64,000 bases of DNA from an uncultured Pseudomonadota bacterium (GTDB lineage: Bacteria > Pseudomonadota > Gammaproteobacteria > Steroidobacterales > Steroidobacteraceae). The notes under the pieces were generated by a model. The model saw only the letters and a list, made by a program, of their open reading frames with translations, had not been told where the DNA came from and did no database searches. Below, piece after piece: positions 158 to 16,012 of this stretch (positions are counted from its first letter, which is position 1; each line of letters begins with the position of its first letter). The translations under genes were made by a program, and so were the position numbers. Location of the stretch: the NCBI GenBank assembly GCA_903898785.1, contig CAIUGU010000038.1, forward strand, positions 1 through 64,000, written 5' to 3'.

Positions 158-1213
158 CTAGCGATAGCGCTGCAGGATCTTCTGCAATCCTGCGTTGCCG
201 GGGGACAGCTTTTCGTAAGGCATGCGGTTCATCGGCGTCGCGACGCTGCCCTGGACCTCATGGAATTCCGGACTCTGCTCGTCGATGTAGATCAAACCCG
301 TCACGTACTCCCCCTGCGCCTGCTTCGTACGGATGTACTCGAACGCCTTGCCGCGATCGGTCGGGTCGTAGGTGGGATCGAGTTTGCGCAGGACGACGCG
401 GCTGCCGTCATGCAACGTCACGGGCAATGCCTCGCCCGGTCCGTAGTCGGCCTTGATCTCGCTCCGCAACGGTACGAAGTCTGCGTGCACCAGCTCGTCG
501 TAGTGGTCGCGAACGAACTGGTAGCTCTTGGTGGAGCCCTCGTGATCGTTGAAGGTCACGCACGGCGACAGCACGTCCACCATCGCAAAGCCCGGGTGGC
601 TCAATGCGGCCTGCAACAGCGGTACGAGCTGTTCCTTGTCGCCCGAGAAGCTGCGCGCGATGAACGTGCAGCCCAGGCTCAAGGCCGCGAGGGCCGGATC
701 GATAGGCGGCTGCTGATTGACCTCGCCCTTCTTCGCTTTGGTACCGATATCCGCGGAGGCCGAGAACTGACCCTTGGTCAGGCCGTAAACGCCGTTGTTC
801 TCGCACACGTACAGCATGTTGATGTTGCGCCGGATTGCATGCGCGAACTGGCCGAAGCCGATCGTCAGCGAATCGCCGTCGCCGGACACGCCGATGTAGT
901 GGAGGTCGCGGTTGGCGGCGATCGCGCCCGTAGCGATGGAAGGCATGCGGCCGTGGACGCCATTGAATCCATGCGCGCCGCTGACGAAGTAGGCCGTGGT
1001 CTTCGACGAACAGCCGATGCCGGACAGCTTCACGATGTCCTGCGGCCGCAGCGACAGGCTCCAGACGGCCTCGATCAGCGCCGCCGTAATGGAGTCGTGG
1101 CCGCAGCCCGCGCACAGCGTCGACATGCCGCCTTCATAGTCGCGGCGCGTGAGCCCGAGCTCGTTGCGGGGCAGGCTCGGGTGGGCAACCTTCGGCTTGG
1201 TCATGAAGCTCAT
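158..1213 (-). CDS. korB: 2-oxoacid:acceptor oxidoreductase beta subunit (TPP-binding)
   Basis: 351 aa; CAGCGHDSI, GIGCSSK, GDGDSLTIG TPP-binding motifs; adjacent to alpha subunit. Confidence 0.9.
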   Translation of the reverse strand: MSFMTKPKVAHPSLPRNELGLTRRDYEGGMSTLCAGCGHDSITAALIEAVWSLSLRPQDIVKLSGIGCSSKTTAYFVSGAHGFNGVHGRMPSIATGAIAANRDLHYIGVSGDGDSLTIGFGQFAHAIRRNINMLYVCENNGVYGLTKGQFSASADIGTKAKKGEVNQQPPIDPALAALSLGCTFIARSFSGDKEQLVPLLQAALSHPGFAMVDVLSPCVTFNDHEGSTKSYQFVRDHYDELVHADFVPLRSEIKADYGPGEALPVTLHDGSRVVLRKLDPTYDPTDRGKAFEYIRTKQAQGEYVTGLIYIDEQSPEFHEVQGSVATPMNRMPYEKLSPGNAGLQKILQRYR

Positions 1214-1222
1214 GTCGGTTCC

Positions 1223-3091
1223 TCAAGGTTTGCCGGCAGTGGCTGTCCGGGGCGTGAGCGAATTCGCGAGCGAGGCCAGCACGCCGTCGACGATGCAATC
1301 GGATGAAATCGGCAGGCCACTGTAGTGCAGGATCGATTGCAGCTTGGCTTTGGCGACTGCCGTCTCCAGGATCAGCAGCGACTTGAGCTGGGCATCCCGA
1401 TTCTGCTCGACGACGAAGACCGTCTCGTGGGCAGCGAGGAAGTTCTCCACCTCCTCACCGAACGGGAAGCCGCGAACGCGCAGATAATCCGCATGGATGC
1501 CGCGCCGGCCCAGCATATCGAGCGCCTCGCGCACGGCGCCGTCGCAGCTGCCGAGCGACAGCAGGCCGATGTCGCGATTCATCGTCCCCACTGCGACGGC
1601 CTTGGGCACCAGCTTCTTCGCAGTTTCGAACTTCCTCTTGAGGCGGTCGACGACGATCTGGTAGTCCGTCGAGTCCTCGGTGTATCCGCCGAACTGGTTG
1701 TGCCCGGAGCCGCGGGTGAAGTAGGCCCCCTTGGGATGCGTGCCTGGCAGCGTGCGGGCGGCGATCGCATCGCCGTCCTTGTCGACATAGCGGTGGAACT
1801 TCGGCAGGGCCTCGATCTCGGCAGCGGTCAATACCTTGCCGCGATCCGGTTGCCAGGTGTCGTCCCACTTGAAGTCCCGGACCATCCAGTCGTTCATGCC
1901 GATGTCCAGGTCGAGCATGACGAACACGGGTGTCTGCAACCGCTCCGCGAGATCGAATCCCGTGGCGGCCATGTAGAAAGCTTCCTCCGGGTTGGCCGGG
2001 AACAGCATCACATGCCGCGTGTCGCCGTGGGATGCGTACGCGCACATCATTAGGTCGCACTGCTGCGTGCGCGTCGGCATGCCGGTGGACGGACCCACCC
2101 GCTGCACGTCGAAGATCACCGCCGGAATCTCGGTGTAGTAGGCGAGGCCGATGAACTCGTTCATCAGCGAAATGCCGGGGCCGCTCGTCGGCGTGAAAGC
2201 CCTGGCGCCATTCCAGGATGCGCCCACCACCATGCCGATGGCGGACAGCTCGTCCTCGGCCTGCATGATCACGTAGTTGTGCTTGCCGGTCTCGGGGTCG
2301 ACACGCAGCTTCCCGCAGAAGTTCTTGAAGGCATCCATCAACGACGTGGACGGCGTGATCGGATACCACGCGCCGACGGTGGCGCCGGCGAAGACGCAGC
2401 CCAGGCCCGCCGCCGTATTGCCGTCGATCAGGATGTGGCCCGCGGTCTTGTCCATGCGCTCCAGCCGGAACGGCAGGGGACACGCGAAGTGCTCCCTGGC
2501 ATAGGCATACCCGAGGTCGAACGCCTTGCTGTTGGAGTCAAGCAGCGCCGGCTTCGCGCCGTAACTCTCCTTGAGCAGCGCGCGGACCACGTCCATGTCG
2601 ATGTCCAGCAGTGCTGCCAGCACGCCTGCATACATGATGTTCTTGAGCAGGATGCGGTTGCGCACGCCGTTGAAGTTCTCGTTGGCGAGCTTCGCGAGCG
2701 GCACGCCGAGGACCGTGATGTCGTCGCGCTTGAGCAGCGTCGACCGCGGCCACGTCGAGTCGTAGATCAGGTAACCGCCCGCGCTCAGCTCCTTGATGTC
2801 GCGGGCATAGGTCTCCGCGTTCATCGCGACCATCAGGTCGACCCGGCCCGAGCGGGCGACGTACCCGTCGCGGCTGACGCGGATCTCATACCACGTCGGC
2901 ATGCCCTGGATGTTGGACGGGAAGTAGTTCTTGCCCATCACGGGCACGCCCATGCGGAACACCGACTTCATCAGCAGCGTGTTGGCGCTGGCGGAACCGG
3001 TGCCGTTGACGTTCGCCAGCTTGATGACGAAGTCGTTGATGCCGGCCTTGCGGGCTTCCCTCAGGCTGTCTTGCGCTGCGGATTCGACCAT
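1223..3091 (-). CDS. korA: 2-oxoacid:acceptor oxidoreductase alpha subunit (gamma-alpha fusion)
   Basis: 622 aa; N-terminal gamma-like domain then GNTAAGLGCVFAGATVGAWYPITPSTSL. Confidence 0.9.
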   Translation of the reverse strand: MVESAAQDSLREARKAGINDFVIKLANVNGTGSASANTLLMKSVFRMGVPVMGKNYFPSNIQGMPTWYEIRVSRDGYVARSGRVDLMVAMNAETYARDIKELSAGGYLIYDSTWPRSTLLKRDDITVLGVPLAKLANENFNGVRNRILLKNIMYAGVLAALLDIDMDVVRALLKESYGAKPALLDSNSKAFDLGYAYAREHFACPLPFRLERMDKTAGHILIDGNTAAGLGCVFAGATVGAWYPITPSTSLMDAFKNFCGKLRVDPETGKHNYVIMQAEDELSAIGMVVGASWNGARAFTPTSGPGISLMNEFIGLAYYTEIPAVIFDVQRVGPSTGMPTRTQQCDLMMCAYASHGDTRHVMLFPANPEEAFYMAATGFDLAERLQTPVFVMLDLDIGMNDWMVRDFKWDDTWQPDRGKVLTAAEIEALPKFHRYVDKDGDAIAARTLPGTHPKGAYFTRGSGHNQFGGYTEDSTDYQIVVDRLKRKFETAKKLVPKAVAVGTMNRDIGLLSLGSCDGAVREALDMLGRRGIHADYLRVRGFPFGEEVENFLAAHETVFVVEQNRDAQLKSLLILETAVAKAKLQSILHYSGLPISSDCIVDGVLASLANSLTPRTATAGKP

Positions 3092-4869
3092 GGCTGTTTA
3101 CCGTCCGAGGCGTGCGGAATGTTGATTGTTGATTTCTGCATGTCCCACGCCGCCGTCGGGCAGCGCTCGGCGCACAGCCCGCAATGCACGCACAGGTCTT
3201 CGTCCTTCACCATGACCCGGCCGGTCATCTTGAGCGCGGCCGAGACATAGAGCGGCTGGCTCTTGTTGGCGGCGGGGGCCTTGAGGCGCGGACGGAGTTC
3301 TTCTTCGGTGCCGTTCGGCGTCATCGTCAGGCAGTCGACCGGGCAGATGTCGATGCAGGCATCGCATTCGATGCACAGCTTCGCGTCGAATACGGTCTGC
3401 ACGTCGCAATTGAGGCAGCGTTGCACCTCGGCCTCGGCCTGCTCGGGCGTGAAGCCCAGCTCCACCTCGATGTTCAGCTTCTTGAAGCGCTCCTTGAGGC
3501 TCACATGCGGCATCAGTCGCCGCTCGACCGGGTTGTAGTCGTTCTTGTACGACCACTCGTGGATGCCCATCTTGCGGCTCGCGAGCGTCACCATGGGAGG
3601 CGGGCGCTCGGCGACCGGCAACCCCTGCACGTACTGGTGGATCGAGATCGCGGCCTGATGGCCGTGCTCGACGGCCCAGATGATGTTCTTGGGACCGAAG
3701 GCCGCATCGCCGCCGAAGAAGACCTGCGGCAGCGTCGACTGGTGCGTGACGGGATCCACCTTGGGGACGTTCCACTTGTCGAACTCGAGGCCCAGGTCCC
3801 GCTCGATCCACGGAAAGGCGTTCTCCTGGCCGATGGCGAGGATCACGTCGTCGCAGGGGATCAGTACCTCGCCCTTCACGCGCTCGCCGGTGATCTGGCC
3901 GTCGACCAGGTCGTACTCCATCTGGTCGAAGAGCATGCCGGTCAGCTTGCCGCCCTGCGTGACGAAAGCCTTCGGCGCGTGGTTCACGACGATCTCGACG
4001 CTCTCTTCCTCGGCGTCGTCCAGTTCCCATTCGGAAGCCTTGAAGAAGCCCCGGGGCTTGCGGGCCATGACCTTCACGGACTTCGCGCCCATGCGCAGCG
4101 AAGAGCGGCAGCAGTCCATTGCGGTATTGCCTACCCCGATGATGAGCACCTTCTCGCCGATCGTCTTGATGTGCTCGAATGCAACCGATTCGAGCCAGTC
4201 GATGCCGATGTGGATGCGATCAGCGTCCGTCCTGCCAGGGATCTTGAGGTCCTTGCCCTTGGGTGCGCCGCTGCCGATGAAGACGGCGTCGAATTCGCCG
4301 GACTTGAGCAGTGCATCCAGGCTGGCGACGGGCGTACCGAGTTTCAGGTCCACGCCCATGTCGATGATGTAGCGGATCTCGTCGTCGAGCACGCCCGCGG
4401 GCAGGCGGAACGACGGAATGTTGGTGCGCATCAGGCCGCCTGCCTGGCCCCATTTCTCGAAGATCGTGACCTGGTAACCGAGCGGCATGAGGTCGTTCGC
4501 CACGGTCAGCGAAGCGGGCCCGGCGCCGATGCATGCAATGCGCTTGCCGTTCTTCTCGGGGGGCGCCTGCGGCAGCAAGTGCTCGACCGGGTCGCGGTGA
4601 TCGGCTGCGACGCGCTTCAGCCGGCAGATCGCGACCGGCTCGGCCTCGACACGTCCGCGGCGACATGCGGGCTCGCACGGGCGATCGCACACGCGGCCTA
4701 GGATGCCGGGAAAGACATTTGATTCGCGGTTGACGAGATAGGCTTCGGTGAAGCGGCCCATCGCAATGAGGCGGATGTATTCAGGTACATCCGTGTGCGC
4801 GGGGCATGCCCACTGGCAATCAACAACCCGGTGGTAGTGGTCCGGGTTGCGAACATCGGTCGGTTCCAC
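3061..4869 (-). CDS. FAD-dependent NAD(P) oxidoreductase with GltD-like and 4Fe-4S ferredoxin domains
   Basis: 602 aa, GTG start; GAGPASLTVANDL dinucleotide-binding motif; CIECDACIDICP and CVHCGLCAERCP clusters; overlaps korA start by 31 bp. Confidence 0.87.
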   Translation of the reverse strand: MEPTDVRNPDHYHRVVDCQWACPAHTDVPEYIRLIAMGRFTEAYLVNRESNVFPGILGRVCDRPCEPACRRGRVEAEPVAICRLKRVAADHRDPVEHLLPQAPPEKNGKRIACIGAGPASLTVANDLMPLGYQVTIFEKWGQAGGLMRTNIPSFRLPAGVLDDEIRYIIDMGVDLKLGTPVASLDALLKSGEFDAVFIGSGAPKGKDLKIPGRTDADRIHIGIDWLESVAFEHIKTIGEKVLIIGVGNTAMDCCRSSLRMGAKSVKVMARKPRGFFKASEWELDDAEEESVEIVVNHAPKAFVTQGGKLTGMLFDQMEYDLVDGQITGERVKGEVLIPCDDVILAIGQENAFPWIERDLGLEFDKWNVPKVDPVTHQSTLPQVFFGGDAAFGPKNIIWAVEHGHQAAISIHQYVQGLPVAERPPPMVTLASRKMGIHEWSYKNDYNPVERRLMPHVSLKERFKKLNIEVELGFTPEQAEAEVQRCLNCDVQTVFDAKLCIECDACIDICPVDCLTMTPNGTEEELRPRLKAPAANKSQPLYVSAALKMTGRVMVKDEDLCVHCGLCAERCPTAAWDMQKSTINIPHASDGKQPWSNPQRKTA

Positions 4870-5092: not shown

Positions 5093-5887
5093 TCAGCCGA
5101 ACCGGTACGACGCCATCGCGACGTCCATGACGTTGTCGAGAAAATCCCGACGACCCAGGTCATCCCCTGCAGCGCCCGCTGCGACCATCAATGGAATCAG
5201 GTGATCCTCGCGCGGATGGGACGAGCGCGCGGCGGGCGCCTGTTCCCAGGCCAGCAGCCGCGAGTTGCGTGTGGCGACGTTGGGCTCCGAAACCGCACTC
5301 GTCAGCCATTGCTCGAACGCCTGCGAGGCGGGTCCGCCGCCGCCGCGAAAGCCGCGCATGTTGTGATAGCTGAGTCCGCTGCCGACGATCAGGACGCCTT
5401 CGTCCCGAAGCGGCTGAAGGGCAGTGCCCGCGTGCAGATGGTCGCGGGGATCCAGCGAGTGCTTGATCGACAGCTGCACCACAGGGATCGTCGCCTGCGG
5501 ATACATCACGTAGAGCGGCACGAACGTCCCATGGTCGAAGCCGCGGGTGGCATCCGTGTCGCAGCGAATCCCTGCCTCCGTCAGCAACAGGCGCACACGC
5601 TCGGCGACGGCGGGCGATCCCGGTGCGGGATACCGGATGTGATAGGTGTGTTCCGGGAACCCCGAATAGTCGTACACCATCGGCGGTTGTGCCGACGTAC
5701 CGACGGTGAACTCCGCTGCCTCCCAGTGGCCCGTCACCGACAGGATGGCCTTCGGCGTGGAGGGCAGCGTCTGCGGCAGCCCGGCCAGCCACCGGGCCGA
5801 GCCTGCGAACATCGCCCGCATCTCGTCGATCCACGGCCAGGGGCCGCCGCCATGGGAGATGAAGAAGGTCGGAAGCCGGCTGGTCAT
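5093..5887 (-). CDS. LigB-family extradiol dioxygenase (4,5-DOPA dioxygenase type)
   Basis: 264 aa from MTSRLPTFFISHGGGPWPWIDE; internal start of the 5093..6286 ORF; ATGA overlap with upstream gene. Confidence 0.85.
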   Translation of the reverse strand: MTSRLPTFFISHGGGPWPWIDEMRAMFAGSARWLAGLPQTLPSTPKAILSVTGHWEAAEFTVGTSAQPPMVYDYSGFPEHTYHIRYPAPGSPAVAERVRLLLTEAGIRCDTDATRGFDHGTFVPLYVMYPQATIPVVQLSIKHSLDPRDHLHAGTALQPLRDEGVLIVGSGLSYHNMRGFRGGGGPASQAFEQWLTSAVSEPNVATRNSRLLAWEQAPAARSSHPREDHLIPLMVAAGAAGDDLGRRDFLDNVMDVAMASYRFG

Positions 5888-8800
5888 CGGGGAGTCCGCG
5901 GCGGGGCCTTGAGCGTGAAGTCGTAGCTGCCGTAGTGGAGGTAGTCGGCCCAATCGACCGAACCGAGCTTGCGGACCGCTGCGCGCGAGGCGTTGAGGGC
6001 GGTGCCGACCGAGTCGCCGCGGACGAGTGCGCGATAGAACGTGGCCGCGAAGGTACCAGCCTCGTCGTCGCCGACGGGCCAGTACGTCCCGACATAGTTG
6101 GCCACGCCCCCGCGCAGGAAGGTTTCTGCGAGGCTCACGTTGCGACGCAGCCGCTCCTCCGCCTTGCCCGCAAAGCGCTGTCCCGCGCGCAGGCGGCCCA
6201 CTTCGCAGGCATTGAAGAAGGCGAGCGCCGGCAGTTCCGCGACGTTGGCGAGATCCGGGCCGGACAATACCTTCTGGTCCGCGCACACGATGCCGCTGCG
6301 CCCGGGCTGTTCCGCGTCAAAGAAGGCGTGGCCGGCGTAATGCAGGACGTCGTAGCGCCCGGAGCGGAACTCCTCGAGCAGGCGCTCGCGGCTGGCCTCG
6401 CTGCCCTCGATCCTGACGATGCGGATGTCCTTCCGCTTGCCGAGCAGCGATTGCAGTCGATCGCCTTCTGCCGCCGCGCCCTCGAGATCGCCGCTCGGAT
6501 TGACGACGAGCAGCACGTCGAGCGTGGCGTCCTGGCGCCGCGCTTCGCGCCAACGGGCGACCGACAGGTTCTCCGCCGCATAGCGGCGGCTCAACCCCGC
6601 ATCGGCAGCGGGGAAACGGCCGTTCACGCTCAGCGTCTCCCACGGATACGCCGCCGCTGCGTTGTCATGGACGACGACGAGGTGATGCGCCTTGACGGTA
6701 TCGAGTGCCTGCAGCACGTCCCGATGCAGCAGCATCGCGCCCAGCACTTCGCCGTAGCCGGACAGCCGCCTGGCGGTGAAGTCGCTGCCCTCGATGCGCC
6801 GCAGGTGCTCGTCGAGTTGCCGCTTCGGCACCTGCTTGGTTCCCGTCAGCACGGCCGCCTTGGAGCCGGAGGTCAGCACGGACGCGCGCAGCGCCAGCAC
6901 CTTGGGCTGCGAGGTGTCCTGCGACACGATGAGATACGCGAACCGCTGGGCCGCACCGCGACGGACGGGCACCACCTCAGCGGGTGCGGCCGTCGTGACC
7001 GTGGGCAGGTCGACCTCGTCGAACGACACCTCGATGTCGTCGAACAGCGGCGTGGCCGACAGCTTGAAGAGGGCATCCCGGAGGGCCGCGCACTTGGCGC
7101 GATCGAACTCCACCAGCGTGATCCGCCTCAGGCGACGGTCGGTATCGCTTTCCTTCAGCGCGCGGAAGTAGCCGCCCAGCTGGTTGGCCAGCGCAGCCTC
7201 GATGCTGACGCCGGAGCCGCCGCCGAGCAGCACCGTCGCGAACTCGTCGACATGCGTGCGCGCAAACGTGCGGACGACATTCCCGGCGACGAACGCCTGT
7301 GCATCGGCATCGAAGCGGTCGAAGTCGCCGAGTCCTGCGAGCAACACCAGCTCCGCGCCGAGACGACTGCGTGCGGTCGGCAACACGAACACTTCGCCGC
7401 GATTTCCCGAGAACATGCGTCGCAGCGTGAACTCCTTGATCGCGCCGCCGAGGCGCTTGTCGATGGCGGCCGCCGCACCGCCGGGTTCGACGCCGCGGAA
7501 CACGCCCAGCACGATCGCCTCCGACTGCACTTCCGTGATGCTGCCGCAGGCGAGGCGGATCTCGAGCGTACGGCGACGCTGCTGCGCATCGATCAGGCGT
7601 GGTTGCGGCGCAGCCGGAGCTCGCGCGGGTTCGGCCGCGCGGCCGAGGAATTCCGGCGAGATCACCGGTTCCAGGAACCTGCGGCGCGACTCCAGCGACA
7701 GGTCCGTCCAGCGGATCTTGCCTTTCACCCGCTGGCGCAACACGGAGTCACGGACCTTGCCGACGACCACGCGACGCTTGCGCGACACCGTGGACGGCAG
7801 CTGCTTCGTGTCATTGGTCTTGAGCAGGTCCACGACGGCTGCGGCCACGAGGGTGCTGTTCGTGAGTCCGCCGTGCGTTTCCTCGGCGAACCAGGTCCGG
7901 GCTTTGGGCCATTCGGCAAGCGCCCGCGGCACGGTGCCATCGCCTTCCAGACCCAGCGTGTACTCGAAGGAGTCCTTCACCCGACGTGCGCCGACGACCG
8001 TTTCCTGGTTCACGCCCATGATCAGGCAGCAGCGTTCGTCGGCAGGGGCGAGTCCGTCGCGCACGCGACGCGCTTCCTCCAGCAGCGCAGCGTCCGGTGC
8101 CAGGCCATCGCGTGGCCACGAGCGCGGATCGAAGAAGTCGAGGGCGGGATGGCGCTCGGGGGCCGGCAGCATCTGGTAAAGGCCGGGCAGCGTGCGGAAC
8201 ACTTTCTCTGCCAGTTGTTCGGCCGTGTGGTGCAGGTCGAGCGCGGCGATCTTGCGGACCGTCGGATAAGTGGCGCGCAACGCCTGCACGGGAGCGAACG
8301 AGCCGTAGTTCGGCGTGCCGAGCTGGACGAGCTGCGCGATCCGCTTGCTGCCCGGACCGTTCAGCGCCGCGCGCGCGACCAGCCCTCCCATGCTGTGTGC
8401 GACGAGCCGTACCGAGGTCGCCCGTTCGCCGGCAATTCGCTCGCCGAGTTCCTTGCCCAGGACGTCGAGCCCGAGGCGCCAGTCGAACGGATGGAAGCTC
8501 GCGTCGAAGCCGGCAAGCTGCAGCGACAGCTTCAGCTTGAGGTAGCCGAACAGCATGACGCCGAGAGGCTGCAGTTTCCGGCCACGCGGCAGGGCCAGGT
8601 CCGTCAGATTGCCCGCGATCACCTCGACCGGATCCAGCCACAGCACGTCGTCGTTGACGCGGCCGGGCGTGCCGATCTTCGAGCCCATGATGCCGGGCAG
8701 GATCAGTACCCGCGGCCCGCCGCGAACACGCCGCGTGGCGACTGCCTCCGCGAGCTGCCGCAGTTCGCGATACTCCGCCTCGCCGAAGTTGGCCTCAAGG

Positions 8801-8907
8801 ACCGCTGCATTCTCGCCGCTTCGCAGCCAGGCCTGGATCTGTTCGTCGTGCAGGCTGCCCAGGTGGAGGACGGGGGTAGCCTTGCCGGCAGGCGGAGTGG
8901 CGCTCAT
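5884..8907 (-). CDS. Multidomain protein: alpha/beta-hydrolase (lipase-like) + M17 aminopeptidase N-domain-like + CHAT protease domain
   Basis: 1007 aa; AHSMGGLVARA, EGDGTVP and ETHGG (lipase Ser/Asp/His context); AIVLGVF...AAIDKRLGGAIKE (M17-N-like); LHYAGHAFFD and FFNACEVG (CHAT His/Cys). Confidence 0.85.
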   Translation of the reverse strand: MSATPPAGKATPVLHLGSLHDEQIQAWLRSGENAAVLEANFGEAEYRELRQLAEAVATRRVRGGPRVLILPGIMGSKIGTPGRVNDDVLWLDPVEVIAGNLTDLALPRGRKLQPLGVMLFGYLKLKLSLQLAGFDASFHPFDWRLGLDVLGKELGERIAGERATSVRLVAHSMGGLVARAALNGPGSKRIAQLVQLGTPNYGSFAPVQALRATYPTVRKIAALDLHHTAEQLAEKVFRTLPGLYQMLPAPERHPALDFFDPRSWPRDGLAPDAALLEEARRVRDGLAPADERCCLIMGVNQETVVGARRVKDSFEYTLGLEGDGTVPRALAEWPKARTWFAEETHGGLTNSTLVAAAVVDLLKTNDTKQLPSTVSRKRRVVVGKVRDSVLRQRVKGKIRWTDLSLESRRRFLEPVISPEFLGRAAEPARAPAAPQPRLIDAQQRRRTLEIRLACGSITEVQSEAIVLGVFRGVEPGGAAAAIDKRLGGAIKEFTLRRMFSGNRGEVFVLPTARSRLGAELVLLAGLGDFDRFDADAQAFVAGNVVRTFARTHVDEFATVLLGGGSGVSIEAALANQLGGYFRALKESDTDRRLRRITLVEFDRAKCAALRDALFKLSATPLFDDIEVSFDEVDLPTVTTAAPAEVVPVRRGAAQRFAYLIVSQDTSQPKVLALRASVLTSGSKAAVLTGTKQVPKRQLDEHLRRIEGSDFTARRLSGYGEVLGAMLLHRDVLQALDTVKAHHLVVVHDNAAAAYPWETLSVNGRFPAADAGLSRRYAAENLSVARWREARRQDATLDVLLVVNPSGDLEGAAAEGDRLQSLLGKRKDIRIVRIEGSEASRERLLEEFRSGRYDVLHYAGHAFFDAEQPGRSGIVCADQKVLSGPDLANVAELPALAFFNACEVGRLRAGQRFAGKAEERLRRNVSLAETFLRGGVANYVGTYWPVGDDEAGTFAATFYRALVRGDSVGTALNASRAAVRKLGSVDWADYLHYGSYDFTLKAPPRTPR

Positions 8908-9800
8908 GTCTTGTCGGCCATCGTCGCGTGGATGAGGTGCCCGACGGCCTTGATGGCGGCGGTGCGCGTGCTGCTCTTGCGCCAGACGGCGCCCACCGTG
9001 CGGGTGGGTACCGGGTTCGCAAAGGGCTTCAGCGTGAGGCTGCGATTCGATGCGAAAGGACCGCTCGTCGCGAGCGCCGGCAGCAGCGTGACGCCGAGAC
9101 CCGCCGCCACCATTTGCCGCAGCGTCTCGAGGCTCGTCGCGCGATAGTCCAGGCTCTCGCGGACATCCACGCGGCTGCAGACGGCGAGCGCCTGGTCGCG
9201 CAGGCAGTGCCCGTCCTCGAGCAGCAGCAGCGTCTCGCCGGGCAGGTCCTCGGGCTTGACGCGCGCCTTTTTCGCGAGCGGATGATCGGACGGGACGGCG
9301 AGCAGGAAGTCCTCTTCATAGAGCTTCTGCGACTCCAGTCCGTCCATGTCGACCGGCAGCGCCAGGATGCCGACGTCGATCTCGCCCTTGTGCAGCTTGT
9401 CGAGCAGCACGGCGGTCTGGTACTCGTACAGCATGAGCTGCAGCTTGGGCAGCTGCTTGTGCAGCTTCCGCGCGACGAGCGGCAGCAGGTACGGACCGAT
9501 CGTCGGTATGAGCCCGACTTTCAGCTTGCCCGACAACGGGTCGCCTTCCTTGCGCGTGAGCGCCTGGATGCCATCGGCCTCTGCCAGCAGGCGGCGGGCG
9601 CGTTCGACGACTTTCTCGCCCATGTCGGTGAGCGCGATGCGGCGGGGCTGCCGTTCGATGAGATCGACGCCGAGGTAGTTCTCCAGCTTCTTGATCTGCG
9701 CGGACAACGTCGGCTGGCTGACGTGGCAGCGCGTCGCCGCCTGCCCGAAATGGCGCGTGTCGGCGAGGGCGACGAGGTAGCGGAAGTCGCGAAGATTCAT
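8904..9800 (-). CDS. oxyR: LysR-family hydrogen peroxide-sensing regulator OxyR
   Basis: 298 aa from MNLRDFRYLVALADTRHFGQAA; LLEDGHCLRDQALAVC contains the two OxyR redox cysteines. Confidence 0.93.
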   Translation of the reverse strand: MNLRDFRYLVALADTRHFGQAATRCHVSQPTLSAQIKKLENYLGVDLIERQPRRIALTDMGEKVVERARRLLAEADGIQALTRKEGDPLSGKLKVGLIPTIGPYLLPLVARKLHKQLPKLQLMLYEYQTAVLLDKLHKGEIDVGILALPVDMDGLESQKLYEEDFLLAVPSDHPLAKKARVKPEDLPGETLLLLEDGHCLRDQALAVCSRVDVRESLDYRATSLETLRQMVAAGLGVTLLPALATSGPFASNRSLTLKPFANPVPTRTVGAVWRKSSTRTAAIKAVGHLIHATMADKT

Positions 9801-9847
9801 GGGGGGAGTATAGAGGACAGTGGCCGGCGGCCGCCGACCCCGCAACG

Positions 9848-10330
9848 CTAGTCGCGGAAGTTGTTGAACTGCACCGGCATGTCGAGCTTGCCCCCGCGGA
9901 CGAGGGCGATCGCGGTCTGCAGGTCGTCGCGATTCTTGCCTGTCACGCGGACCTTCTTGTCCTGGATGGCGGCCTGCACCTTCAGCTTCGATTCCTTGAT
10001 GAGCTTCTGGATCTTCTTCCCCAGCTCCGCTTCGACGCCCTGCCGCAACGTGATCGCCTGTTTCGCGGTCGCGAGGTTGATGACCGGATCGTCGATCTTG
10101 AGGCACGCAATATCGATGCCCCGCTTGGTCAGCCTGAGCTTCAGGATGTCGAGCAGCTGCTTGAGCTGGAAGTCCGCCTCCGCGACGAGCGTGATGACCT
10201 CCTTGGCGTGTTCGAAACGGCACTTGGTGCCCCGGAAGTCGAAGCGGGTTTCGAGTTCGCGGGTGGCCTGGTCGATGGCATTGGCCACCTCGTGCATGTC
10301 GAGTTCGGAAACAATGTCGAATGAAGGCAT
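9848..10330 (-). CDS. yajQ: YajQ-family nucleotide-binding protein
   Basis: 160 aa from MPSFDIVSELDMHEVANAIDQATRELETRFDFRGTKC; characteristic of YajQ. Confidence 0.93.
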   Translation of the reverse strand: MPSFDIVSELDMHEVANAIDQATRELETRFDFRGTKCRFEHAKEVITLVAEADFQLKQLLDILKLRLTKRGIDIACLKIDDPVINLATAKQAITLRQGVEAELGKKIQKLIKESKLKVQAAIQDKKVRVTGKNRDDLQTAIALVRGGKLDMPVQFNNFRD

Positions 10331-10557
10331 GACGGGGTCAACCTCACCATGGTGGAACGCTGCGCCGAAGCACACGCAAGTGCCCGATTGAACTGGAAAA
10401 GCGGACGATCACGGGCTGCGGCTGGGCGGCTATTCTGGCCGAATGCCGGCCGTTGTGAAACCTGCGCAAACCCCCTGTCGGGCAGCGCACTTGAATGGCA
10501 TGATGCGCACCCCCGCACCCATGCGGGCGCTTCGGAACCCCGCCGTTACGCCAGGCC

Positions 10558-11778
10558 ATGACTCAAGAGACTTCTTCCACCCCCCTGCCTACGAGGGTCG
10601 TCCTGCTGCTCGGCGCCATGATTGGTCTTGGCCCCTTGAGCATCGACATGTATTTGCCCTCGTTCCCGACCATCGAACGGGAGTTCGGCGCGGTGAGCGG
10701 GTCGTTGCAGCTCACGCTCGCCACCTATTTCGTCGGCCTGGCGGCGGGCCAGGCGTTCTATGGCCCGATCAGCGACCGCTTCGGCCGCAAGCCGCCGTTG
10801 TACTTCGGCCTGCTGCTGTTCCTGCTGGCAGCCGTGGGCTGCGCGCTCAGCTCGACCGTCACGCAACTCGCCACGTTCCGCCTGCTGCAGGGGCTCGGGG
10901 GCTGTGCCGCGATGGTGGTCACGATGGCGATCATCCGCGACTGCGCGACCGGCGCCGCTGCGGCCAGGCTGTTCTCGCGGCTCATCCTGGTGATGGGCAT
11001 CGCGCCCATCATCGCCCCGCTGGTGGGCGGCTGGCTGCTGACGCAGTTCGGCTGGCGCGCGATCTTCTTCCTGCTGGCTTCTGCCGGGACGCTTGCGCTC
11101 GTCGGCGTGCACTTCCTGCTGAAGGAGACCCGCGATCCCGCGCATGTCGTGCCGCTGAGCGTGCCCTCGGTGCTGAGGAGCTACGGCCAGCTGCTGACGG
11201 ACCGGTCGTTCGTGGGCTACGCACTCGTCGGCGCCACGGCCCTGACCGGCATGTTCGCGTACATCGCCGGGTCGCCGTTCGTGCTGATCGAGATCTACGG
11301 CGTCGAGGCGCAGAACTTCGGCTGGTTCTTCGGTGCGAACGCGGCCGGCTTCATCCTGGGCAGCCAGATCAACGGTCGACTGGTCGGGAGGTTCGGCGCG
11401 ACGCGTGTGCTCCACCGCGCCGTCGTGATCCCTGCCGTCGCTGGTGTCGGCCTGGCGGGCTTCGCGCTGGCGGGCTGGTTGCCGTTGTACGTGCTGTCGA
11501 TCGGTTTCTTTGCGTACGTCGGCAGCCTGGGCTACATCAACCCGAACTCGATGGCGCTGGCACTGGCGAAACAGGGCCATCGCGCCGGCACGGCGTCCGC
11601 GCTGTCAGGTTCTGCGCAGTTCGTCTTCGCAACGATCGTGGGCGTCATCATGAGCGCGTGGCACGACGGCACCGCATGGCCCCTGGCCTGTGTCATGGCC
11701 GTGTGCGGCGTCTCTGCGCTGGTTGCAGAGCGCGTGCTGACGGCTCCTTTCAGGGCCCCCGCCACCGCCACGAATTGA
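10558..11778 (+). CDS. Bcr/CflA-type MFS drug resistance transporter
   Basis: 406 aa; 12-TM pattern; [16 protein letters not shown] and [11 protein letters not shown] motifs. Confidence 0.88.
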
Positions 11779-13793: not shown

Positions 13794-14357
13794 ATGTCGC
13801 TGATCAATACTGAAGTCAAACCGTTCAAGGCCAATGCCTACCATAACGGCCAGTTCGTGACCGTCACGAACGAGGACCTGAAGGGCAAGTGGTCCGTGTT
13901 CGTGTTCTATCCCGCCGACTTCACGTTCGTGTGCCCGACGGAACTGGGCGACCTCGCCGACAACTACGCCGAATTCAAGAAGCTGGGCGTGGAGATCTAC
14001 GGCGTGTCGACCGACACCCACTTCACGCACAAGGCGTGGCACGACACGTCGGACACGATCAAGAAGGTGCAGTACCCGCTGGTCGCCGACCCGACCGGCC
14101 TGCTGTCCCGCAATTTCGAGGTAATAATCGAGGAAGAAGGCCTCGCGCTGCGCGGCACGTTCGTCATCAACCCGGAAGGCAAGATCAAGATCATCGAGGT
14201 GCACGACAACGGCATCGGCCGCGATGCGAAGGAGCTGCTGCGCAAGGTGCAGGCGGCGCAGTACGTCGCGTCGCATCCGGGTGAAGTCTGCCCGGCCAAG
14301 TGGACGCCCGGTGCGGCCACGCTGGCGCCGTCGCTCGACCTGGTCGGCAAGATCTGA
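13794..14357 (+). CDS. ahpC: Alkyl hydroperoxide reductase subunit C (peroxiredoxin)
   Basis: 187 aa; [19 protein letters not shown] and [10 protein letters not shown]. Confidence 0.97.
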
Positions 14358-14449: not shown

Positions 14450-16012
14450 ATGCTCGATGCGAACCTGAAGACGCAGTTGAAGGCCTATCTCGAACGGGTC
14501 TCGCAGCCCATCGAACTCATCGCTTCGGTGGATGACGGCAGCGCGTCGCTGGAAACGCTCGAGTTGCTTAACGACATCGCCGGTCTGTCCGGGCTCATCA
14601 CGGTGCAGGTGCGCCGCGACGATGCCGAGCGGAAGCCGTCGTTCTCGGTCGGTGCGCCGGGCGGGGCACCGCGCATCCGCTTCGCGGGACTGCCGATGGG
14701 GCATGAATTCACGTCGCTGGTGCTCGCGTTGCTGCAGACCGGCGGCTATCCGCCCAAGGCCGAGCAGGACGTGCTCGACCAGATCCGTGCGCTCGACGGC
14801 GAATTCGTCTTCGAGACCTACATTTCCCTGACCTGCCAGAATTGTCCTGACGTCGTGCAGGCCTTGAACCTCATGGCAGTGCTCAACCCGAGCATCCGCC
14901 ACACGATGATCGATGGCGCGCTGTTCCAGGACGAAGTGAACCAGCGCCAGATCATGGCGGTGCCGACTGTTTTCCTGAACGGCGTGTCCTTCGGCCAGGG
15001 CCGCATGGGACTCGAAGAGATCGTCGCGAAGCTGGATACCGGTGCCGTGAAGCGCGACGCGGAGAAGGTGAGCGCCAGGGCACCTTTCGATGTCCTCGTC
15101 GTGGGCGGCGGCCCTGCCGGCGCAGCTGCGGCGATCTACGCCGCGCGCAAAGGCATCCGCACGGGCGTTGCGTCAGAGCGCTTCGGCGGCCAGGTACTCG
15201 ACACGATGGCCATCGAGAACTTCATCTCCGTGCAGGAGACGGAAGGACCCAAGCTCGCGATGGCGCTCGAGCAGCACGTGAAGTCCTACGACGTGGATAT
15301 CATGAACCTGCAGCGCGCGGTCGCGTTGATCCCGGGCGATCTCATCGAGGTCCGGTTCGAGAGCGGCGCGTCGGTCAGGTCGAAGTCCGTGATCCTCGCC
15401 ACCGGTGCCAGGTGGCGCGAGATCAACGTGCCCGGCGAGAAGGAGTACCGTAATCGCGGCGTGGCGTACTGCCCGCACTGCGATGGCCCGCTGTTCAAGG
15501 GCAAGCATGTCGCCGTGATCGGCGGCGGCAACTCAGGCGTGGAAGCCGCCATCGACCTCGCCGGCGTGGTGAGCCAGGTGACGCTGATCGAGTACGACGC
15601 GCAACTCCGGGCCGACGCGGTCCTCACGCGCAAGCTGCACAGCCTGGCCAATGTCACCGTCATCACCAGCGCCCAGACCACCGAGATCACGGGCGACGGC
15701 CAGCGCGTGAACGCGCTGCACTACAAGGATCGCCAGTCCGGCACCGTCAACAAGGTGGACCTCGCGGGCGTCTTCATCCAGATCGGCCTCGTCCCGAACA
15801 CCGATTGGCTGAAGGGCGTCGTGAAGCTGTCCCCGCGAGGCGAAATCGAAGTCGATGCCCGCGGCCAGACGTCAGTCCCCGGCGTTTTCGCCGCCGGCGA
15901 CTGCACCACCGTGCCCTTCAAGCAGATCATCATCGCGATGGGGGACGGCGCCAAGGCGTCGCTTGGAGCGTTCGATCATCTGATCAGGAGTCCGGTGTCG
16001 ATGGCGGCCTAG
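14450..16012 (+). CDS. ahpF: Alkyl hydroperoxide reductase subunit F
   Basis: 520 aa; thioredoxin-like N domain ([13 protein letters not shown]), FAD motif [22 protein letters not shown]. Confidence 0.95.

What the first reader, a model, noticed from the sequence alone, without database searches (positions are those of the whole stretch)
5884..8907. Three-domain putative effector: lipase-like hydrolase + M17 N-domain-like + CHAT protease
One 1007-aa chain carries a lipase-type Ser/Asp/His context (AHSMGG, EGDGTVP, ETHGG), a leucyl-aminopeptidase N-domain-like (macro-related) segment without the M17 catalytic domain, and a C-terminal CHAT domain with intact HYAGHA and NACEVG. CHAT domains are caspase-like and often serve in immunity or programmed-death systems, so this may be a proteolysis-controlled membrane-damaging effector or a ligand-gated protease (inference).
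Basis: partly seen in the sequence, partly recalled or inferred. Interest (0 to 1): 0.75.

Follow-up and report, generated by a model that had tools for sequence, protein, structure and literature searches.

The report
OxyR-linked lipase–CHAT protease fusion protein
This bacterial gene makes one protein that joins a fat-splitting enzyme to a caspase-like protease through a macro-fold domain; it lies in the same operon as the peroxide sensor OxyR, while its distant relatives sit beside immune-type genes, so it looks like a defence-type enzyme pair adopted into a stress-response locus.

Summary
Minus strand 5884-8907 encodes 1007 aa: a PGAP1/LCAT-type lipase (Ser172/Asp323/His345), an M17 N-domain with a macro fold and no M17 catalytic domain, and a CHAT protease (His860/Cys901). 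Pfam, structure prediction, conserved catalytic residues in homologues and low dN/dS support all three domains.

The gene is translationally coupled (ATGA overlaps) to an upstream OxyR and a downstream LigB-type dioxygenase. In its bacterial family the gene usually follows oxyR, often with ahpC/ahpD divergent. Many genera keep only the lipase half at that locus, so the lipase does not need the protease and is probably not a lethal caged toxin. More distant relatives are 1.8-2.0 kaa proteins with TPR-S sensors. They lie next to TIR genes more often than chance (4 of 9 genomes, P about 7e-6 under a simple null), and others lie next to SIR2-pYEATS, caspase or restriction genes. In one plasmid the protease is a trypsin instead.

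Best reading: a conflict-system-type hydrolase-protease module wired into an OxyR operon, with the CHAT half regulating or complementing the acyl hydrolase. Trigger, substrates and phenotype are untested. A new variant of a known kind.

The parts
5884..8907 (-). lipase–M17N(macro fold)–CHAT protein, 1007 aa
   Evidence: orthologues
8728..8862 (-). N-terminal helical extension (residues 16-60), also present in lipase-only orthologues and in the lipase-trypsin relative
7672..8727 (-). alpha/beta-hydrolase (LCAT/PGAP1 type), residues 61-412; Ser172 8392-8394, Asp323 7939-7941, His345 7873-7875
7570..7671 (-). disordered Ala/Pro/Arg-rich linker, residues 413-446 (low pLDDT, dN/dS 0.43)
6988..7569 (-). 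M17 aminopeptidase N-terminal domain, macro fold, residues 447-640
6757..6987 (-). beta-rich extension leading into CHAT, residues 641-717
5908..6756 (-). CHAT protease, residues 718-1000; His860 6328-6330, Cys901 6205-6207
8904..9800 (-). OxyR-type LysR regulator, 4-bp ATGA overlap with the start of the finding gene
5093..5887 (-). LigB / 4,5-DOPA-dioxygenase-like protein, 4-bp ATGA overlap with the end of the finding gene
13794..14357 (+). AhpC peroxiredoxin (peroxide context)
14450..16012 (+). AhpF (peroxide context)

Best explanation
The protein is a cytosolic hydrolase-protease pair in one chain, of the kind found in bacterial conflict systems, settled in an oxyR operon. Shown: three intact domains under purifying selection, translational coupling to oxyR, a conserved oxyR position in the family, and a lipase able to persist alone. 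Inferred: the gene is made together with OxyR. A stress or infection signal reaches the M17N-CHAT half, perhaps through the macro-fold domain, and opens the separase-like protease. The protease then changes the attached acyl hydrolase, for example by cutting the disordered linker, and may cut other proteins too. The hydrolase acts on membrane acyl lipids. The outcome is lipid remodelling or repair under peroxide stress, or growth arrest if strongly activated.
For: Domains and catalytic residues. C-half model pTM 0.78, matching separase, TPR-CHAT, SAVED-CHAT and the PepA N-domain/macrodomains. Lipase profile closest to lipases, group XV phospholipase A2 and LCAT. ATGA overlaps on both sides. 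OxyR and AhpC/AhpF/AhpD models. oxyR upstream on the same strand in about 34 family loci of both architectures, often with ahpC/ahpD divergent. Flexible linker between two well-folded halves. Immune-type neighbours and TIR adjacency in relatives. Published precedents: caspase-type domains in VMAP systems always come with an alpha/beta-hydrolase gene (PMC7159879), and caspase- or trypsin-activated pro-enzymes act in phage defence (PMC12799240).
Against: No ligand, cleavage site, substrate or phenotype was tested. Lipase-only orthologues show CHAT is not needed for the lipase's basic role. Some genera carry the gene away from oxyR. OxyR binding sites were not mapped. The full-length model has a modest pTM of 0.52, so the placement of lipase against CHAT is unknown.
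Confidence: 0.42

Rival explanations
1. The core function is a housekeeping OxyR-linked acyl hydrolase that removes damaged (for example peroxidised) acyl chains or related esters. The M17N-CHAT half is a dispensable accessory gained or lost repeatedly.
For: Lipase-only orthologues with intact triads occupy the same oxyR/ahpCD locus in many genera. Architecture changed about 8 times on the lipase tree. No M17N-CHAT remnants lie beside lipase-only genes.
Against: In the window's genus the C-half is more constrained (dN/dS 0.055-0.058) than the lipase (0.138), so it is not decoration. All outgroup relatives found keep a protease half.
Confidence: 0.28
2. It is an anti-phage effector: the macro-fold domain senses a nucleotide-like signal of the kind made by TIR or SIR2 enzymes and activates CHAT and lipase to stop an infected cell.
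For: TIR genes within 5 kb of relatives in 4 of 9 genomes, expected 0.16, P about 7e-6 under a simple null; one TIR gene overlaps the lipase-CHAT gene by ATGA. SIR2-pYEATS beside the Rhizobium plasmid homologue. TIR-NB-ARC-TPR and caspase beside another. TPR-S sensors in the long forms.
Against: No TIR, SIR2 or defence gene beside it in the window. The gene is near-universal, vertical and chromosomal in the family rather than patchy. The macrodomain adenine Asp is not conserved. No phage record carries it.
Confidence: 0.18
3. The M17N-CHAT half is a stress-signalling protease that cuts a regulator, with the lipase half serving localisation or a separate task.
For: Structural matches to separase and to the anti-sigma factor DdvA. 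M17N-CHAT proteins without a lipase exist in other lineages (L043, L030).
Against: Lipase triad intact in nearly all members, so the lipase is not a mere anchor.
Confidence: 0.1

Closest known systems
Caspase-type domain plus alpha/beta-hydrolase effector pairs of MoxR-vWA (VMAP) conflict systems (Kaur et al. 2020, PMC7159879)
   Same: Caspase-superfamily protease tied to an alpha/beta hydrolase; trypsin versus caspase exchange
   Different: One fused chain, no MoxR, vWA or VMAP; sits in an oxyR operon
TPR-CHAT (Csx29) of Craspase (PMC9729208)
   Same: CHAT fold and His-Cys dyad
   Different: No TPR, no Cas7-11; carries lipase and M17N instead
SAVED-CHAT filament protease (PDB 8tl0)
   Same: Sensor-like domain joined to CHAT; best bacterial CHAT sequence match in the PDB
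   Different: M17N/macro fold in place of SAVED; extra lipase
DUF7379–LCAT–M17N-like–CHAT–TPR-S proteins (relatives L053, L084-L089)
   Same: Lipase, M17N-like and CHAT order
   Different: The window protein lacks the N-terminal DUF7379 hydrolase and the C-terminal TPR-S, and has no TIR neighbour
M17 leucyl aminopeptidase (PepA)
   Same: N-terminal domain sequence and fold
   Different: Lacks the metal-dependent catalytic domain

Membership tests
CHAT protease (PF12770) | Profile match over cut-off | tested here: met
   110.5 bits against 24
CHAT protease (PF12770) | Conserved His-Cys dyad | tested here: met
   His860 and Cys901 in all C-half rows
CHAT protease (PF12770) | Separase/caspase-like fold | tested here: met
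   Foldseek matches to separase, TPR-CHAT and SAVED-CHAT
CHAT protease (PF12770) | Endopeptidase activity | not testable with these tools
   needs biochemistry
LCAT/PGAP1-type alpha/beta hydrolase | Profile match and Ser-Asp-His order | tested here: met
   PGAP1 28.0 and LCAT 25.8 bits over cut-offs; Ser172 after strand 166-171, Asp323, His345
M17 aminopeptidase | Metal-binding catalytic domain | tested here: not met
   no such domain in the Pfam scan
ADP-ribose-binding macrodomain | Macro fold | tested here: met
   TMt about 0.65-0.8 to TTHA0132, Af1521 and YmdB
ADP-ribose-binding macrodomain | Conserved adenine-contacting Asp after the first strand | tested here: inconclusive
   position is S/D/E/N among relatives, Ser in the window; identification by eye
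Thoeris-like TIR plus caspase systems | TIR gene in the same locus | tested here: not met
   none beside it; the genome's only TIR hit is on another contig. Met in four distant relatives
Craspase | TPR-CHAT with Cas7-11 | tested here: not met
   no TPR or CRISPR protein in the Pfam scan of the gene and its neighbours
OxyR operon member | Adjacent, same strand, translationally coupled to oxyR | tested here: met
   ATGA overlap; OxyR best model 310.8 bits, just under its 329 cut-off
OxyR operon member | Peroxide-dependent expression | not testable with these tools
   needs RNA data

The most novel reading that the evidence does not exclude
The M17N macro-fold domain is a sensor for an NAD-derived or redox signal that gates a CHAT protease, which in turn gates a phospholipase. 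TIR/SIR2-linked relatives use this in immunity, and this lineage has rewired the same module to OxyR, joining peroxide sensing to caspase-like membrane action.
Probability: 0.17. Interest if true: 0.8.

Novelty: new variant of a known kind. Interest (0 to 1): 0.55.

Why it matters
It links three things rarely seen together: a caspase-like protease, a phospholipase-type hydrolase and the peroxide regulator OxyR. The same locus exists with and without the protease half, so nature has already made the comparison needed to ask what the protease adds. The TIR/SIR2 neighbours of relatives suggest that M17 N-domains can act as sensors in immunity, which a binding assay could test.

Tried and rejected
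Defence island around the window gene: not found; PADLOC gave only a weak BovA match to the CHAT part. Phage origin: no match in 50,697 phage records. Viral contig scans failed for technical reasons. Ancestral state of the fusion: equal-rates and unequal-rates models disagree (P(full) 0.98 against 0.11) and the C-half tree is only partly resolved, so gain versus loss is left open. M17N in the lipase-trypsin relative: not detected. Literature: no paper on this architecture was found in the searches made.

Full report
Observation. The finding lies on the minus strand, 5884-8907, and encodes 1007 aa. Pfam places PGAP1/LCAT lipase, Peptidase_M17_N and CHAT above their gathering cut-offs, with no M17 catalytic domain.

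Reality of the domains. In an alignment of 61 members the CHAT His and Cys are kept in every C-half, and the lipase Ser, Asp and His in nearly every lipase (one distant row has HGM in place of HSM). Against the same-genus orthologue (87% identical) dN/dS is 0.138 for the lipase, 0.43 for the linker, 0.058 for M17N and 0.055 for CHAT. AlphaFold gives mean pLDDT 75 and pTM 0.52 for the whole chain, and pLDDT 80 and pTM 0.78 for residues 447-1007. Foldseek matches the C-half to separase, TPR-CHAT, SAVED-CHAT and DdvA, and the middle domain to PepA N-domains and macrodomains. A profile search puts the lipase near lipases, group XV phospholipase A2 and LCAT, and the middle domain near PepA. Coordinates of the models were not available, so active-site distances were not measured.

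Local context. The gene overlaps the upstream LysR gene by ATGA and the downstream LigB-type dioxygenase by ATGA. The LysR protein scores best as OxyR, 310.8 bits against a cut-off of 329, and carries the two Cys of the GHCLRDQA...C segment (comparison with E. coli OxyR is from general knowledge). AhpC and AhpF lie 4-6 kb away on the + strand. YajQ lies upstream of oxyR.

Family context. Of 200 genomes of the same family, 127 carry a homologue, in 22 of 25 genera. In about 34 of the loci examined the gene has an OxyR gene upstream on the same strand, often with divergent ahpC and ahpD, and in some a PCu(A)C gene in between. This holds for three-domain proteins and for proteins of about 420-480 aa that are the lipase alone. 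On the lipase tree the two architectures need 8 changes. Whether the protease half was gained or lost repeatedly is not resolved, and no remnants of it lie beside the lipase-only genes. The lipase can therefore persist at this locus without CHAT.

Wider family. Class-level relatives are 1.8-2.0 kaa proteins with DUF7379, LCAT, an M17N-like segment, CHAT and TPR-S. In a set of 399 genomes across the phylum only 3 had a match, the window's own included. A Rhizobium leguminosarum plasmid carries a full-length relative beside SIR2-pYEATS and a DNA/RNA non-specific endonuclease. An Azotobacter plasmid form lies beside restriction-modification and recombinase genes. A Qingshengfaniella plasmid protein joins the same lipase to a trypsin-like protease. 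Other neighbours are a TIR-NB-ARC-TPR gene with a caspase gene, a TIR gene, a TIR-PASTA gene and HipA. A TIR scan of 13 genomes shows a TIR within 5 kb in 4 of 9 non-family genomes, expected 0.16, P about 7e-6 under a uniform-placement null. The scan was prompted by TIR neighbours already seen in three of those four genomes, and defence genes cluster, so this P value is optimistic; the fourth, a TIR-membrane gene overlapping the long lipase-CHAT gene by ATGA in L087, was found by the scan itself.

Mechanism. The evidence fits a hydrolase-protease module of conflict-system type that this lineage keeps in an OxyR operon. Precedents are the caspase plus alpha/beta-hydrolase association in VMAP systems (PMC7159879), protease-activated pro-nucleases including caspase-nuclease loci (PMC12799240), and allosteric activation of TPR-CHAT (PMC9729208). 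The linker between lipase and M17N is disordered and fast-evolving, a plausible cut site, but this is inference. The macro-fold domain might bind a nucleotide-like ligand, but the adenine-contacting Asp is not conserved. The lipase-only orthologues argue against a lethal lipase held in check only by CHAT.

Verdict. Its effector idea is partly supported by relatives and partly weakened by the lipase-only orthologues. The link to peroxide stress is the strongest new point about this locus. I call it a new variant of a known kind.

Noticed in passing
L087:4714-5763 and 5760-11378: A TIR-membrane protein gene overlaps the end of the DUF7379–LCAT–CHAT–TPR-S gene by ATGA: a coupled TIR plus lipase-CHAT pair that looks like an undescribed immune locus.
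   Followed up: partly
L086:4117-13675: TIR-NB-ARC-TPR, caspase C14 and lipase–CHAT–TPR-S genes in a row on one strand.
   Followed up: partly
L030:1827-9685: Two tandem M17N-CHAT genes without a lipase, next to a trypsin and a pentapeptide-repeat protein, in a Verrucomicrobiales MAG.
   Followed up: no
L102:8001-10523: Same lipase with its N-terminal extension fused to Trypsin_2 instead of M17N-CHAT.
   Followed up: partly
L037:6995-9799: The reading frame of the genus g9 orthologue is broken by one in-frame TAG just before the lipase Ser; recent nonsense change or assembly error.
   Followed up: no
L032 and L033: Near-identical genes in MAGs labelled proteobacterium and Planktophila (actinobacterium): probable mis-binning.
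   Followed up: no
window 158-4869: Pyruvate:ferredoxin oxidoreductase-type genes and a GltD-like Fe-S flavoprotein downstream, also beside the lipase-only orthologue in genus g4.
   Followed up: partly
window 5935-9147: A 1070-aa open frame antisense to the finding gene; a high-GC by-product.
   Followed up: no
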